From: Verrucomicrobiota bacterium
GTDB taxonomy: Bacteria > Verrucomicrobiota > Verrucomicrobiia > Limisphaerales > UBA9464
Assembly (NCBI GenBank): GCA_947471985.1
Contig: CANIZL010000013.1
Location: forward strand, 1-64,000
Length of the DNA stretch: 64,000 nt
Reading direction: 5' to 3'
Position 1 is the first letter of the stretch. Each line of letters starts with the position of its first letter. Of the stretch, positions 2,268 to 59,489 are shown piece after piece. A model generated the notes under the pieces. It was given only the letters and a program-made list of their open reading frames with translations. It did not search any database and was not told the DNA's origin. The position numbers were made by a program, and so were the translations under genes.

Positions 2268-2402
2268 GTACCGCTGGTTTTCCACCGGCAACCTCCCCCG
2301 TAACGCTGGTTTTCAACCGGCGAGTCCTGGTGTAGCGCTGGTCGCCAAACCGGCCATCCCTCTCCGCCGCCCCCACTTGCCGACTGGAAAGTCAGCGCTA
2401 CA
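2268..2402 (-). repeat. Cluster of hairpin-3 units of the three-hairpin repeat
   Basis: Three inverted versions of the GCCGGTTGGAAAACCAGCG hairpin occur near 2268-2289, 2299-2322 and 2334-2356 (CGCTGGTTTTC...CGGC), and a forward-oriented variant lies near 2379-2402. The same hairpin is the third element of the full repeats at 29.4-32.3 kb. Here it occurs without hairpins 1 and 2. Confidence 0.55.
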
Positions 2403-29288: not shown

Positions 29289-29392
29289 ATTTCTTTAATC
29301 CTCCCGGGACAACTTGCCGCGGGAGACGCTCAGGATATCCCCCCGCGCGCCGGAGGCAATGGCGGGCACCCACGCCGTACCGATTGCGCACG

Positions 29393-29427
29393 TTCGTGGT
29401 TCGTGGTTCGTGGTTCGTGGTTCGTGG
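29393..29427 (+). repeat. TTCGTGG tandem repeat, five units
   Basis: TTCGTGG is repeated five times exactly, then decays as TTCGG. It directly adjoins the start of three-hairpin copy 1, which begins GGAGTTCCGG. The GTTCGGAGT-like entry of the other copies may be a shortened version of the same edge. Confidence 0.9.
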
Positions 29428-29430
29428 TTC

Positions 29431-29615
29431 GGAGTTCCGGATTTATCCGGCGGAGCTTGCGACCGGTCGAGCGCGTCGGAGGTCCCATCGCCCATCCGGC
29501 ATGTGCCCACGTTTCCGCCTGAAGGCGGGACTCCGTACCGGCGAAAGGCAAATTCCACGGCTATTTCCCCTTCTGTTCCGGAACCCCAACTCGCCGGTTG
29601 AAAAACCAGCGTTAC
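29431..29615 (+). repeat. Three-hairpin repeat, copy 1
   Basis: Hairpin 1 is CCGGATTTATCCGG at 29437-29450, hairpin 2 is CCGCCTGAAGGCGG at 29515-29528, and hairpin 3 starts at 29592 (CGCCGGTTGAAAAACCAGCG). The hairpin starts are 78 and 77 bp apart, as in the other copies. The sequence between hairpins is partly conserved as well (CTTGCGACCGGTCGAGCG, GGGACTCCGTACC). Confidence 0.88.
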
Positions 29616-29706
29616 CGATACTGCGCGTCCAACCTCCTCAAGCCGCCCACAAACACCCTTGGTTACTCCCGCCTCGCCCGCTTGCTTCCGCCGTCACCGT
29701 GCACCA

Positions 29707-29722
29707 ACATGTAATTGCATGT
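29707..29722. promoter_or_regulatory. Palindromic operator-like site before the TA pair
   Basis: ACATGTAATTGCATGT has 5-bp half-sites around 6 bp, and CATG recurs again just before 29733, giving three CATG boxes 10-11 bp apart. It lies 25 bp upstream of the antitoxin ATG at 29748. Antitoxins of the Phd type usually repress their own operon through such sites (inference here). Confidence 0.5.
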
Positions 29723-29747
29723 TTAAAGCATGGGAAAAACCGATACC

Positions 29748-30038
29748 ATGATTCACCTCTCCGACATTCATTCGCTGACCGATTTTCAGCGCGACGCGAA
29801 GACCCATCTCAAGCAACTCAAGAAATCGGGCCGGCCGAGTGTCCTGACGGTCAACGGCAAAGCGGCCGTGGTCATCCAGGACGCGGCGGCCTACCAGTCG
29901 ATGCTCGATTTGCTCGACCGCGCTGAGGCGATTGCCGGTATCCAGCGCGGATTGGACTCCCTCCATCGTGAAGAAGGTGAACCCGCATCCTCAGTTTTTG
30001 ACCGAATTCAAGCCAAGCACCGCATTACCGCGCCATGA
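29748..30038 (+). CDS. Type II antitoxin, Phd/YefM family
   Basis: The product has 96 residues from ATG 29748 (an ATG at 29730 is in frame and would overlap the palindromic operator-like region). The N-terminal half is a Phd/YefM DNA-binding fold: SDIHSLTDFQRDAKTHLKQLKKSGRPSVLTVNGKAAVVIQDAAAY. The C-terminal half (LLDRAEAIAGIQRGLDSLHREEGEPASSVFDRI) is the toxin-neutralising tail. The toxin gene follows with a 4-bp ATGA overlap. The pair lies between three-hairpin repeat copies 1 and 2, which suggests it arrived with or within a mobile segment. Confidence 0.88.
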   Translation: MIHLSDIHSLTDFQRDAKTHLKQLKKSGRPSVLTVNGKAAVVIQDAAAYQSMLDLLDRAEAIAGIQRGLDSLHREEGEPASSVFDRIQAKHRITAP

Positions 30039-30358
30039 CCCGCTGGCCGGTCGTCATTCAGCCCCCCGCCGCGGCTGAAATCGAGGCCGCCTACGTGTGG
30101 ATTGCCGAAAGCAATCCCGCTGCCGCGGCGACCTGGCTTTTCGGCCTAAGAGCAGCGATCCAGGGCCTGAGTAAATTGCCCGAGCGCTGTCCGTTGGCCC
30201 CGGAAAACTCAGCGTTTAAGGAGGAGATTCGCGAACTCATCTACGGCAAACGGAGCGGACGCTACCGGATATTTTTCACCATCCGGGCCACGACCGTTCA
30301 CGTCCTCCACGTCCGCCACGGGGCCCGTGACCAACTGAAACCCGGGTCCGAAGAGTGA
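30035..30358 (+). CDS. Type II toxin, RelE/ParE family
   Basis: The product has 107 residues with the ParE/RelE fold pattern: IQPPAAAEIEAAYVWIAESNPAAAATW, LSKLPERCPLAPEN, then the beta-strand core IRELIYGKRSGRYRIFFTIRATTVHVLHVRHGARDQL. The GRYRIFF strand and the closing VRHGARD basic motif match members that either cleave mRNA on ribosomes (RelE) or poison gyrase (ParE); sequence alone does not decide which. Its ATG overlaps the antitoxin stop, so translation is coupled and the complex can repress the operon. Confidence 0.87.
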   Translation: MTRWPVVIQPPAAAEIEAAYVWIAESNPAAAATWLFGLRAAIQGLSKLPERCPLAPENSAFKEEIRELIYGKRSGRYRIFFTIRATTVHVLHVRHGARDQLKPGSEE

Positions 30359-30457
30359 CCGGGAATCCAATTCCGACTTTGAATTCCTGATCCGCCCCCT
30401 GAAGGATCGGATTCCAAGGGCCAACCACCGCCCCATCCAGCGCGTGACGGGTCCCCC

Positions 30458-30647
30458 GGTTCGGAATCCCGGATTTATCCGGCACGGCTCTCGCCCGGTC
30501 GCGCACGTTAGGTGTTCCCCCGCCGATCCATCCAGTGCAAACCCAACCGCCTGAAGGCGGGACTCCGCACCGAAGGCTCGGGACTTCCCGATCTATTTCC
30601 CCAGATCTGACGGAACCCTGACTCGCCGGTTGGAAAACCAGTGGTAC
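30458..30647 (+). repeat. Three-hairpin repeat, copy 2
   Basis: Hairpin 1 is at 30469-30482, hairpin 2 at 30547-30560 and hairpin 3 from 30624 (CGCCGGTTGGAAAACCAG). The hairpin-to-hairpin distances are 78 and 77 bp, identical to copy 1, although the sequence between hairpins has drifted more than in the other copies. Confidence 0.88.
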
Positions 30648-30680
30648 AGGGGCGGCGCATTCCAAGTTCGGAGTTCCCAG

Positions 30681-30794
30681 GTTCGGAGTACCGGATTTAT
30701 CCGGCGGGGCTTGCGACCGGTCGAGAGCGTCGGAAGTCCCATCGCCCATCCGGCAAGCGCACAAGTTTTCGCCTGAAGGCGGGACTCCGCACCC
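30681..30794 (+). repeat. Three-hairpin repeat, copy 3 (truncated)
   Basis: Hairpin 1 is at 30691-30704 and hairpin 2 at 30770-30781, about 78 bp apart. Hairpin 3 is missing because the stop codon of the minus-strand gene follows at 30798. Confidence 0.82.
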
Positions 30795-30797
30795 AAC

Positions 30798-31748
30798 TCA
30801 GCGGCAGGGAATCGTCAATTCCGGCCCGGTCGCATTCAATTGAAGGGGTTCGAGGCGATCCAGGATCAGCGCCGCCTCGTCCCCCAGTTCCGACGCCCAC
30901 CGCTGCTGAAAAATGGCGCGATACGATCGCAGCACTTCCTTCATTTCCGCGGACTCTTCCGCCGCCGACGCCTGATAACTCGCGGAAAGACTGACCCCAT
31001 TCCGGTCCGGTGACGTTTTGAGGGCCTTCACCGCCGCCGCAGAATGTCTCGCGTCATCCGCCATCACACCCTCCAAATAGCTTTTCAATCCCACATAAAC
31101 ACAACCATCCATGAACAATTGCCCCCGTAACGGATTGGCCTCGGTGTGGGCGAAGGATTGAAGGATATTCGAGTAGCCCGCGGTTCCGGAACTCAACAGC
31201 TGGGAATAGCGTTCGTACAAAGGATCGTCGGGGGCGAGGGCCTCCGCGTCCGCGGTTGGCGGCGGACTTGAAGAATTCTCCTTGGGCGCGGCACTCAATT
31301 GCTCAAAAGCCTCCCCCGCACCCTCGCACTTCAAATCCGAAAAACGCGCGGCATAGGCATAATCATTCAGAAACAGCTTCTGTTGCAATCCGTCCAAGCG
31401 TTTGCGGCCATTACTGCCAGATTTGAACTTTTCCTTCTCGCGCTCGATCCAGCCAAAGGTATCCCTCGCCAAAGACAGTTTGGCGTTTTCCAGGATATTT
31501 TCCGAACTGGTCCCCACAGCCCTCGGCGGCCGATTTCCCGGCGGGCGAGTTTGCGATTTGACCGGCAGTTGGGCTGGCCCGGATCCCGGCGCAGAAGTCG
31601 GGCGGTCCTCGGGACGCTGAGCCGACTCCGAACGGCGCGAAAATTGAACCTTCGTAACCAACAAAGCCAAAAGCAGGGCCAAAAACGCCACCGTTATCAG
31701 GATGAGTCTTGGAGATTTCACATTAACGGCTTCCGGCTTCTTCGACAC
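30798..31748 (-). CDS. Hypothetical single-pass membrane protein
   Basis: From GTG 31748 (preceded by GAGGG at 9 bp) the product is 316 residues; an ATG at 31808 would add 20. There is one N-terminal membrane segment (LILITVAFLALLLALLV) and then a Pro/Ser/Arg-rich linker of about 45 residues. The C-terminal 230 residues look soluble and mostly helical (ENAKLSLARDTFGWIEREKEKF and later EMKEVLRSYRAIFQQRWASELGDEAALILDRLEPL). I do not recognise the family. It is an orphan between two clusters of three-hairpin repeats, in an accessory patch with the toxin-antitoxin pair. Confidence 0.55.
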   Translation of the reverse strand: MSKKPEAVNVKSPRLILITVAFLALLLALLVTKVQFSRRSESAQRPEDRPTSAPGSGPAQLPVKSQTRPPGNRPPRAVGTSSENILENAKLSLARDTFGWIEREKEKFKSGSNGRKRLDGLQQKLFLNDYAYAARFSDLKCEGAGEAFEQLSAAPKENSSSPPPTADAEALAPDDPLYERYSQLLSSGTAGYSNILQSFAHTEANPLRGQLFMDGCVYVGLKSYLEGVMADDARHSAAAVKALKTSPDRNGVSLSASYQASAAEESAEMKEVLRSYRAIFQQRWASELGDEAALILDRLEPLQLNATGPELTIPCR

Positions 31749-31932
31749 AGCATTGCACCCTCTTTTCTGTCCCGCCTTCGGGGGTGACCCAGGACATTTG
31801 CCATCCACTCATGAAGGCATTTGGGGGCGACGATGGGGCGGCATTCGGGTCTCGGAAATCACGAGAGGAAGGCTACCTTCCGCGTCCATTTTCACGCAAG
31901 TGATTTCATTTCCGTCACCAACGCCAAGCCCA

Positions 31933-32123
31933 GGTTCGGATTCCCGGATTTATCCGGCGGAGCTTGCGGCGGGTCGAGCGGGTGAGGAGTCCCTTCGCTC
32001 GTCCTGCAGGTGCACACCCCACCGCCTAAAGGCGGAACTCCGTACCAGCGGGTGGCAATTTCCCGATCTATTTTCCACGCTGTCCCGAAACCCCGACTCG
32101 CCGGTTGGAAAACCAGCGGTACA
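31933..32123 (+). repeat. Three-hairpin repeat, copy 4
   Basis: Hairpin 1 is at 31944-31957, hairpin 2 at 32022-32035 (CCGCCTAAAGGCGG, with a loop change that keeps the stem) and hairpin 3 from 32099. The distances are 78 and 77 bp. The loop variation with an intact stem suggests the structure, not only the sequence, is maintained. Confidence 0.88.
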
Positions 32124-32140
32124 GGCATGGCGCCTGCCGG

Positions 32141-32344
32141 GTTCGGAGTGCCCGGTTTGGAGTACCGGATTTATCCGGCGGGGCTTGCGACCGGTCGAGC
32201 GAGTGAGGAGTCCCTTCGCTCGTCCTGCTGGTGCACACGTCTCCGCCTGAAGGCGGGACTCCGTACCAGCGGCTCGCGCCTCCCGATATATTTCCCACGC
32301 TGTCCCGAAACCCCGACTCGCCGATTGGAAAACCAGCGGTACAG
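32141..32344 (+). repeat. Three-hairpin repeat, copy 5
   Basis: Hairpin 1 is at 32165-32178, hairpin 2 at 32243-32256 and hairpin 3 from 32319, with distances of 78 and 76 bp. It follows copy 4 after only 17 bp in the same orientation and ends about 45 bp before the stop of the efflux permease gene. Confidence 0.88.
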
Positions 32345-32388
32345 GATTCGCGGGCCGCGAGTCCGTGGGTCGCCCTCCCCCTTCCCGC

Positions 32389-33702
32389 CTACTCGTGCCG
32401 CAGGGCTTCGACCGGGTCCATCTTCGCGGCGCGGAGGGCGGGATAGAGGCCGAAAATCACCCCGACCAAGGCCGAAATCGTAAAGGCCGCCACCGGCGAG
32501 CCCCACGTAATGATCGTCTTCATCTCCGCCACCCGCGACACCACAAAGGGTATCGTCACCCCCAACGCCACCCCGAGCAGGCCCCCCACGCCGGAGAGAA
32601 TCACCGCCTCAACGAGGAATTGCGTCGTTATGTCCTGCCGCTTCGCGCCCAGCGCGCGTCGGATGCCGATCTCCCGGGTCCGTTCCGTCACGTTGGCCAG
32701 CATGATGTTCATAATGCCGATGCCGCCCACCAGCAGCGAAATGGCCGCAATGGAGCCCAGCACGAGACTGAAGATCCGCTTGGTGCGTTCCGCCTTCTTC
32801 AACAACTCCAGCGGCACCACCACGTCATAATCCTTCTTCTTGTGGTTCTTCGACAACAGATCCCGCACCACATCCGAGACCGGCACCACATCCTCCGGCT
32901 TCGCGACCTTCACGGTGATCTCATGCAATTCGATCCGCTGCGCTTCAAAGGAACCCTGACGTCGATTCGCCAGCACTTCGCCGTACCGACGCCGGGCGGT
33001 CTCCAGCGGGATGAACATCCGGTCCGCCGCGGGCGAGGAACCGCCCGAGCTGGCGTCCCCGCTGTGCTCCGCGCCCGCCCCGGCCGCCTTGGTGCGCGCC
33101 TCCATGACACCCACCACCCGATAGTAATGCTGGCCCACCCGCACGTCCCGGCCCACGGGTTCGTGCAACGGAAACAGGCGTCGCGCCATCTCTGCGCCCA
33201 AGACACAGACGTTCTCTGCGGCGTCCATTTCGGTGTTGGTGAAGAAGCGGCCGCGGGCGACCTGATGGTTCCGCGTGCGGGGATAATTCGGGAACGTCCC
33301 CACCACTTCCGCATCCACACGGGTCGAAATGTTCCAGACATATTCCCGCATCACCCGCGCCGGCAGCACGAGTTCCACCGAGGGAATCGTCTTCTCGATC
33401 CGGCGGACGTCCTCGTGGGTGAGTCCATAGCTCAGGATATAATTCTCGCGCCGCCCCTGGACCTTTTCCTCCTCAGGCGGTTTGACACTGCGCAGCAGAA
33501 TATTCTGCGAACCCAGACTCTTAATTTCCTCCTGCGCGGCGTAGGAGGCGCCCTCCCCAATCGCCAACATCGCGATCACGGAACAGACGCCGAAGACAAT
33601 GCCCAGCATCGTCAGAAACGACCGCAGCCGGTGCAGCCAAAGCGAGCGCAGCCCCAATCGAACGGAGCGCTTGAGCCGGGTGAGCATTAGGGAACGCTTC
33701 AT
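32389..33702 (-). CDS. MacB-type ABC transporter permease
   Basis: The product has 437 residues with the MacB/FtsX layout: an N-terminal membrane helix (RSFLTMLGIVFGVCSVIAMLAIG), a periplasmic MacB_PCD domain of about 230 residues (including GTFPNYPRTRNHQVARGRFFT and VCVLGAEMARRLF), and a C-terminal set of three helices starting LVLGSIAAISLLVGGIGIMNIMLANVTERTREIGIRRALGAK, the FtsX signature. It ends the four-gene operon and its ATG overlaps the ATPase stop by 4 bp. With the separate ATPase it should form the inner-membrane motor of a tripartite exporter, for antibiotics, lipids or lipoproteins; the substrate cannot be read from sequence. Confidence 0.93.
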   Translation of the reverse strand: MKRSLMLTRLKRSVRLGLRSLWLHRLRSFLTMLGIVFGVCSVIAMLAIGEGASYAAQEEIKSLGSQNILLRSVKPPEEEKVQGRRENYILSYGLTHEDVRRIEKTIPSVELVLPARVMREYVWNISTRVDAEVVGTFPNYPRTRNHQVARGRFFTNTEMDAAENVCVLGAEMARRLFPLHEPVGRDVRVGQHYYRVVGVMEARTKAAGAGAEHSGDASSGGSSPAADRMFIPLETARRRYGEVLANRRQGSFEAQRIELHEITVKVAKPEDVVPVSDVVRDLLSKNHKKKDYDVVVPLELLKKAERTKRIFSLVLGSIAAISLLVGGIGIMNIMLANVTERTREIGIRRALGAKRQDITTQFLVEAVILSGVGGLLGVALGVTIPFVVSRVAEMKTIITWGSPVAAFTISALVGVIFGLYPALRAAKMDPVEALRHE

Positions 33703-59429: not shown

Positions 59430-59443
59430 CCGGATAAATCCGG
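59430..59443. repeat. Solitary hairpin 1 of the three-hairpin repeat
   Basis: CCGGATAAATCCGG, the inverse form of hairpin 1, lies 13 bp after rnhC and is followed by GGGACTCCGAGCC. Hairpins 2 and 3 are absent. Sitting between two convergent genes (rnhC and hprK), it could act as a weak bidirectional terminator. Confidence 0.6.
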
Positions 59444-59489
59444 GACTCCGAGCCTGGGGCTCCCGTCCGGAGACCGCCCCGCCCCGGAA

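What the first reader, a model, noticed from the sequence alone, without database searches (positions are those of the whole stretch)
29431..32344. Five copies of a three-hairpin repeat with near-constant 76-79 bp spacing
Each full copy carries CCGGATTTATCCGG, then CCGCCT(G/A)AAGGCGG, then CGCCGGTTGGAAAACCAGCG. The starts of hairpins 1 and 2 are 78-79 bp apart in all five copies and hairpins 2 and 3 are 76-77 bp apart in the four that keep hairpin 3, although the intervening sequence drifts. Loop changes occur with the stem intact (copy 4). All five point the same way and surround a toxin-antitoxin pair and an orphan gene. The regular geometry suggests a structural unit, possibly an RNA or a protein scaffold site, or a non-autonomous mobile element. 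Incomplete versions occur at 2268-2402 and 59430-59443.
Basis: seen in the sequence. Interest (0 to 1): 0.72.

Follow-up and report, generated by a model that had tools for sequence, protein, structure and literature searches.

The report
Clustered REP palindromes forming REPIN arrays
The regular three-hairpin repeats are clusters of small palindromic DNA elements of a known kind (REPs and REPINs), probably spread by a dedicated transposase that sits beside the same palindromes in related bacteria but was not found in this genome.

Summary
In detail: five co-oriented copies, h1-h2 starts 78 bp apart in 5 of 5, h2-h3 starts 76-77 bp apart in 4 of 4. Reading both strands changes the interpretation. 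h1 and h2 are one family in opposite orientation (GTTCGGAGTnCC + palindrome, tags outward). h3 belongs to a second tagged family. These are REP palindromes: h1-h2 is an inverted REP doublet (REPIN), h1-h2-h3 a mixed tandem array.

The doublet occurs in 16 of 195 genomes of the order (138 copies; backward-pattern control 0). Stem positions that the search left free are complementary in 704 of 724 cells (shuffles: mean 480, maximum 509). A clade of RAYT-type transposases has this REP within 130 bp of the gene at 14 of 14 loci, against 0 of 66 other Y1-transposase loci. Tags (GGAG, GTAG, GGTG, AGAG) go with the transposase clade.

Against: this genome, and 12 of the 16 doublet-bearing genomes, show no close member of that clade, and movement itself was not shown. 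RNA-gene, CRISPR and recent-duplication-only readings are not supported. Verdict: a new family of a known kind; the tag switching is its most interesting side.

The parts
29426..29450 (+). copy 1, h1: type-A REP, tag left
29515..29539 (-). copy 1, h2: type-A REP, tag right; h1-h2 is the doublet (REPIN)
29590..29615 (-). copy 1, h3: type-B REP (GTAA tag)
30458..30482 (+). copy 2, h1: type-A REP
30547..30571 (-). copy 2, h2: type-A REP
30622..30647 (-). copy 2, h3: type-B REP
30680..30704 (+). copy 3, h1: type-A REP, in tandem with copy 2
30769..30793 (-). copy 3, h2: type-A REP; h3 absent
31933..31957 (+). copy 4, h1: type-A REP (tag GGAT)
32022..32046 (-). copy 4, h2: type-A REP, loop variant
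32097..32122 (-). copy 4, h3: type-B REP
32154..32178 (+). copy 5, h1: type-A REP, in tandem with copy 4
32243..32267 (-). copy 5, h2: type-A REP
32317..32342 (-). copy 5, h3: type-B REP
59430..59450 (-). lone type-A REP
2268..2402 (.). cluster of type-B REPs (h3 family), not an incomplete unit
29730..30358 (+). Phd/YefM antitoxin and ParE toxin genes lying between copies 1 and 2; bystanders
30798..31808 (-). 336-aa orphan gene between copies 3 and 4; no family hit; bystander

Best explanation
Each copy is a cluster of REP palindromes. h1 and h2 form a REPIN: two REPs in inverted orientation with outward tags (GTTCGGAG...), whose outer arms can pair so that single-stranded DNA folds with a hairpin at each end. 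h3 is a REP of a second family. The doublet is a non-autonomous element recognised by tag plus hairpin by an HUH single-strand transposase (RAYT, TnpA-REP) and copied or moved on single-stranded DNA; hence the two ends stay intact at a set distance while the filler drifts. The window cluster arose by insertion between genes, followed by tandem duplication of h1-h2-h3 modules. Shown: REP anatomy, doublet geometry in many genomes, complementary stems, copy numbers, RAYT association and tag differences between RAYT clades. Inferred: mobilisation itself, the order of events, and that this genome's copies are orphans (RAYT lost, or missing from a fragmented assembly).
For: h1 and h2 are one family inverted. 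Doublet in 16 of 195 genomes of the order, this one included, 138 copies, backward-pattern control 0. 181 distinct doublets: free stem positions Watson-Crick in 704 of 724 cells, shuffles mean 480, maximum 509; on 47 distinct 20-mers 75 of 94, shuffles mean 41, maximum 54. Conservation starts at G(-3)T(-2); further out no position exceeds 0.18 bits. RAYT gene found between two doublets, 10 bp from each; NCBIfam REP_Tyr_transpos 5.1e-19; profile finds PDB 4er8, TnpA-REP, at 1.3e-7. Type-A REP within 130 bp of the gene at 14 of 14 clade loci (13 of 13 without the seed locus), exact-consensus sites at 0 of 66 other Y1 loci. Tags group on the RAYT tree. Type B has 141 sites in this genome, control 0, with two complementary stem versions. 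REPs more conserved than spacers.
Against: No clade RAYT in this genome (0 at E<=1e-10; 0 at E<=0.001 with a profile), and 12 of the 16 doublet-bearing genomes have no match of 48% identity or more. The RAYT scores below the curated cut-offs (68.6 of 80 bits; Pfam 22.3 of 23). The consensus for the 14-against-66 count was widened after seeing the clade loci, though it was applied alike to the controls; with 2 mismatches allowed, 3 control loci had single or double chance-like sites. Presence/absence seen once, with ragged edges. The consensus fold of ten own-genome copies has 1 covarying pair of 31. No experiment on movement.
Confidence: 0.86

Rival explanations
1. A structured RNA (regulatory or small RNA) transcribed from each copy, with hairpins held at fixed spacing.
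For: Stable local hairpins; copy 5 folds better than all 200 shuffles (z -3.0); stems are complementary in many genomes.
Against: No Rfam match. z-scores of the other four copies are -0.81, 0.73, -1.57 and -1.82. Contexts differ: copy 1 between divergent genes, copies 2-3 between convergent genes, copies 4-5 between the 5' end of the orphan and the 3' end of an ABC permease gene. The single REPs also occur alone and in other arrangements.
Confidence: 0.04
2. Domesticated REP cluster kept for a cellular role (binding site for a nucleoid or topoisomerase protein, mRNA end protection or transcription termination), no longer mobile here.
For: No cognate RAYT found in this genome while REP cores remain conserved. 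Such roles are reported for REPs elsewhere (introduction of PMC8266576; passages of PMC6006769).
Against: Gene contexts are not consistent, and no binding or expression data exist. A repeat-flanked gene is easily lost from a 180-contig assembly; one array runs to a contig end on C145. Not exclusive of the best explanation.
Confidence: 0.07
3. Recent local duplication only: one accidental sequence copied five times, the constant spacing being mere inheritance.
For: Copies are homologous along their whole length; tandem pairs 2-3 and 4-5 share the same order and a tag-like insertion of about 15 bp in the linker.
Against: Doublets of the same kind with unrelated or weakly related spacers and similar lengths occur in 15 other genomes of the order, with complementary stems. 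Local duplication explains the cluster, not the unit.
Confidence: 0.02
4. CRISPR-like array or integron-like cassette array around the toxin-antitoxin pair and orphan gene.
For: Regularly spaced repeats flank two gene cassettes.
Against: Spacers are homologous, not unique. The single REPs and doublets occur without cassettes at other places. No cas or integrase gene was looked for in particular.
Confidence: 0.01

Closest known systems
REPINs and mixed GI-GIII tandem REP arrays of Pseudomonas fluorescens SBW25 (PMC3116915, passages read)
   Same: Inverted REP doublets with set distance (71 and 110 bp there; 104 bp from tag to tag here), conserved ends and less conserved filler, compensatory changes, clusters beside a RAYT gene, and evenly spaced tandem arrays that mix two REP classes (112 and 72 bp steps there; 78, 77 and about 66 bp here).
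   Different: Other palindrome and tag; three REPs per unit with an inverted doublet inside; cognate RAYT not found in the same genome; no excision reads available.
GTAG-tagged REP superfamily, including Opitutus terrae (PMC3733652, sections 5 and 14 and passages read)
   Same: Short tagged stem-loops, head-head dimers with conserved spacers, trimers and hybrid dimers of different families; known in a verrucomicrobium; tags already known to drift (GTGG in most O. terrae GTAG-20).
   Different: Type A carries GGAG (or GGTG, AGAG) in most loci seen here; GTAG only in two genomes. Figure 1 with the published consensus sequences was not readable, so identity with one of its 24 families cannot be ruled out.
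TnpA-REP / RAYT subclasses (PMC6006769, passages read; PMC8266576, introduction read)
   Same: HUH + single Tyr; NHYH motif and a proline-rich N-terminus as described for subclass 2.8; genes flanked by REPs.
   Different: Y motif Y[VI]H[NH]NP here against YIHYNP given for 2.8; subclass membership was not tested, no reference sequences at hand.

Membership tests
REP (repetitive extragenic palindrome) | Short palindrome with a conserved tetranucleotide at its 5' foot | tested here: met
   Type A GGAG + 2 nt + palindrome; type B GTA(C/A/G) + palindrome. The tag is not the canonical GT[AG]G for type A.
REP (repetitive extragenic palindrome) | Many dispersed copies, between genes | tested here: met
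   141 type-B sites in this genome; about 26-28 type-A sites, a modest number; the five window copies lie between genes. Intergenic location was not tested genome-wide.
REP (repetitive extragenic palindrome) | Associated RAYT gene (REPtron) | tested here: met
   Type A: 14 of 14 clade loci in relatives, 0 of 66 controls; not in this genome. Type B: one truncated RAYT-like frame next to two doublets, in 1 place among 27 loci scanned.
REPIN | Two REPs in inverted orientation at a preferred distance | tested here: met
   16 of 195 genomes, control 0; of 181 distinct doublets 61 are 80-90 bp, 109 are 98-106 bp, 11 others, within the 80-110 bp that the search allows.
REPIN | Doublet can fold into a hairpin or clover in single-stranded DNA | tested here: inconclusive
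   Arms pair in the predicted folds of several copies, but only 1 of 5 is clearly better than shuffles; own-genome covariation 1 of 31 pairs.
REPIN | Excision or transposition intermediates | not testable with these tools
   Needs reads; only one presence/absence case was seen.
RAYT / TnpA-REP (the transposase in relatives) | HUH motif, catalytic Tyr, Y1 fold | tested here: met
   NHYH and Y-x-H-x-N-P invariant in 8 aligned members; NCBIfam 5.1e-19 and Pfam 1.6e-4, both under the curated cut-off; PDB 4er8 at 1.3e-7. The predicted structure was poor, mean pLDDT 55.
Rfam RNA families | Covariance-model match | tested here: not met
   0 matches at gathering score over the window, 0 at E<=1 over 29300-32450.
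CRISPR array | Identical repeats with unique spacers | tested here: not met
   Spacers are homologous between copies.

The most novel reading that the evidence does not exclude
A RAYT lineage in Verrucomicrobiota and perhaps neighbouring phyla whose REPs have changed the usual guide tetranucleotide several times (GTAG, GGAG, GGTG, AGAG) on much the same palindrome, with the transposase co-evolving, and whose doublets keep two preferred lengths (about 85 and about 102 bp). It would be a natural series for reading how these enzymes choose tag and spacing; the mixed A-A-B arrays here would be a second-order product in which two REP systems are amplified together.
Probability: 0.5. Interest if true: 0.55.

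Novelty: new member of a known kind. Interest (0 to 1): 0.42.

Why it matters
It moves a puzzling three-hairpin unit into a class with a known logic and points to its likely transposase. Because tags differ between transposase clades while the palindrome stays much the same, the family offers matched enzyme/target pairs for testing how RAYTs recognise their targets. It also extends REPIN-type doublets to many uncultured Verrucomicrobiota and, by DNA pattern alone, to records labelled Planctomycetota, Sumerlaeota, Acidobacteria and Chloroflexaceae.

Tried and rejected
RNA gene: Rfam empty, ARAGORN empty, own-genome consensus fold with 1 covarying pair of 31. This genome's own Y1 transposases as the cognate: no type-A or convincing type-B site in the 20 loci fetched of 26 matches. 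Empty site at the window locus: of 38 genomes searched 21 had the peroxiredoxin; upstream stretches of 9 relatives hold none of the window's neighbouring genes apart from one distant ABC ATPase match. Whole unit in relatives: not found in 57 other genomes at E<=0.001; 6 of them had matches of 24-45 nt, most to the h2 REP, one (G037) to spacer sequence (three of the ten printed loci were not centred on the match). Type-B transposase: one truncated case only. Structure of the RAYT: low confidence, so no fold search was run. Doublet lengths outside 80-110 bp were not searched for; only 22 such or non-exact pairs turned up in passing.

Papers: searches. For REP with Verrucomicrobia (4 papers) only PMC3733652 was relevant; (5,282 papers, 20 listed) only PMC3733652 and PMC6006769. 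Six versions of the palindrome as text hit one unrelated AFM paper. That this family is not in print rests on these searches; figures and most subscription papers are not held.
Full report
OBSERVATION. The five copies are real and co-oriented. h1 and h2 start 78 bp apart in 5 of 5, h2 and h3 77, 77, 77 and 76 bp apart in the 4 copies that keep h3. Pattern scans with up to 3 mismatches gave 6, 5 and 4 sites with at most 0.03 expected. The repeat finder gives one family of five 127-nt copies, and fuller units in three or four of them.

READING BOTH STRANDS. h1 with its left flank is GGTTCGGAGTnCCGGATTTATCCGG; the reverse complement of h2 with its right flank is GGTACGGAGTCCCGCCTTCAGGCGG. They are one kind of object facing each other, tags outward. 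The reverse complement of h3 is TGTACCGCTGGTTTTCCAACCGGCGAGTC, a second kind. Type-B members in this genome carry GTAC, GTAA or GTAG tags and two stem versions, GGTT..AACC and GACT..AGTC. A tag at the 5' foot of a palindrome, in dimers and clusters, is how REPs are described in PMC8266576 (introduction) and PMC3733652 (sections 5 and 14 and passages).

OWN GENOME. Type A: 118 sites at up to 2 mismatches, 59 for the backward control, so the 2-mismatch sites are mostly noise; 21 sites have 0 and 7 have 1 mismatch, two of the latter (C49, C105) looking like chance. Type B: 141 sites at up to 3 mismatches, control 0. The unit search gave 48 matches at E<=10; compound copies outside the window lie on C43, C25, C145, C159, C104, and separate h2-type REPs on C34. 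The order h1-h2-h3-h1-h2 is seen at both tandem pairs of the window (with a last h3 in copy 5) and on C43; on C159 it is h2-h3-h1-h2, the first h1 being lost. In 12 own-genome units pairwise identity is 0.89 (h1), 0.91 (h2), 0.89 (h3), 0.72 and 0.61 (the two spacers). Type-B REPs form other regular arrays, with steps such as 63, 77/162, 91, 190-199 and 209-219 bp.

OTHER GENOMES. Of 58 related genomes (this one included) 7 match the unit at E<=0.001, the other six with 24-45 nt only. The doublet pattern occurs in 16 of 195 genomes of the order, 138 copies, backward control 0 in each genome listed. Among 181 distinct doublets the free stem positions are Watson-Crick in 704 of 724 cells (CG 501, GC 190, AT 10, TA 3) against a shuffled mean of 480 and maximum of 509; on 47 distinct 20-mers, 75 of 94 against 41 and 54. 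Lengths: 61 of 181 are 80-90 bp, 109 are 98-106 bp, 11 fall elsewhere; the search itself allows only 80-110. Of 42 tail-to-tail neighbours in the fetched records 28 have gaps of 20-39 nt, that is, doublets in tandem.

TRANSPOSASE. A Pfam Y1_Tnp search in 10 of the 15 other doublet-bearing genomes gave a weak hit lying between two doublets in G096. The 206-aa gene is 10 bp from a type-A REP on each side. It matches NCBIfam REP_Tyr_transpos at 5.1e-19 (68.6 bits, cut-off 80) and Pfam Y1_Tnp at 1.6e-4 (22.3 bits, cut-off 23); a profile of eight members finds PDB 4er8, TnpA-REP, at 1.3e-7. Over 195 genomes the protein matched 61 at E<=1e-10; the close clade (48% identity or more) is 14 loci in 13 genomes, three of them broken or fragmentary. 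All 14 have a type-A REP within 130 bp of the gene, one mismatch allowed, and at least one exact-consensus site in the locus; none of 66 other Y1 loci has an exact-consensus site. The consensus had been widened after a look at the clade loci. Without the seed locus the count is 13 of 13. Tags: GGAG at 5 loci, GTAG at 2, GGTG at 5, AGAG at 1, and GGAG with a changed stem at 1. On a tree of 12 rows the four GGTG rows group (93/97, drawn open by the tool) and the two GTAG rows group (97/93) inside the GGAG rows. Nine of the 13 clade genomes are not among the 16, as expected where the tag is not GGAG.

WINDOW GENES. Copy 1 lies upstream of a peroxiredoxin gene and of the Phd/YefM-ParE pair, copies 2-3 between the ends of ParE and the orphan, copies 4-5 between the start of the orphan and the end of a MacB/FtsX-type ABC permease gene. 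No shared regulatory context appears.

AGAINST. This genome has no clade RAYT, and 12 of 16 doublet-bearing genomes have none at 48% identity. Repeat-flanked genes are easily lost from short-read assemblies and one array runs to a contig end (C145), but that is an argument, not proof. One doublet of G070 is absent from the matching place in its congener G113 (about 394 against 126 nt between alignable flanks), with ragged edges. The window's own neighbourhood is not kept in 9 relatives. Movement was not shown.

KNOWN KIND AND NOVELTY. The nearest precedent is P. fluorescens SBW25, with REPINs at set distances, RAYT-adjacent clusters and evenly spaced mixed GI-GIII arrays (PMC3116915, passages). 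GTAG REPs are reported as abundant in the verrucomicrobium O. terrae (PMC3733652). I file the finding as a new family of a known kind; the switching of the tag with the transposase clade is the part worth following.

Noticed in passing
own genome, loci L035-L045, L048, L050 (13 loci; e.g. L037:1459-2427): A multi-copy RAYT-like gene (322 aa where complete; N-terminal 90 aa 91% identical or more between copies, some cut by contig ends, one with a stop) flanked by another repeat of the form GTGCCAGG(C/T)TCnCT, found 1-5 times per locus at 13 of 13 loci against 1 of 7 comparison loci. RAYTs are usually single-copy, so this looks like an active element of its own.
   Followed up: partly
L120 (C123), L121 (C24), L122 (C107), L125 (C29), L126 (C67), own genome: Type-B REPs form several other regular arrays with repeated steps of 63, 77/162, 91, 190-199 and 209-219 bp.
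   Followed up: partly
L409:732-1207 (genome G177): The last 119 codons of a RAYT-like frame run into a type-B REP: its TAA stop overlaps the GTAA tag, followed by two 60-bp inverted type-B doublets.
   Followed up: partly
window 29390-29434: GTTCGTG repeated about five times, running straight into the GTTCGGAG tag of copy 1; similar tag-like extra pieces (GTTCGGAGT..CC) sit in the linkers before copies 3 and 5. Perhaps slippage or partial re-insertion at the tag.
   Followed up: no
L211 (genome G181), about 1216 and 1931: Another GTAG-tagged palindrome (GTAGCCGTGGCTTT..AAGCCA(C/T)GG) on both sides of a Y1 transposase hit.
   Followed up: no
L245 (genome G070), 1-1320: The clade RAYT here is surrounded by 14 type-A sites (up to 2 mismatches), several with a CGCG..CGCG stem, another compensatory stem version.
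   Followed up: no
window 30798-31808: 336-aa orphan gene between copies 3 and 4 without Pfam or NCBIfam hit at E<=0.01.
   Followed up: no
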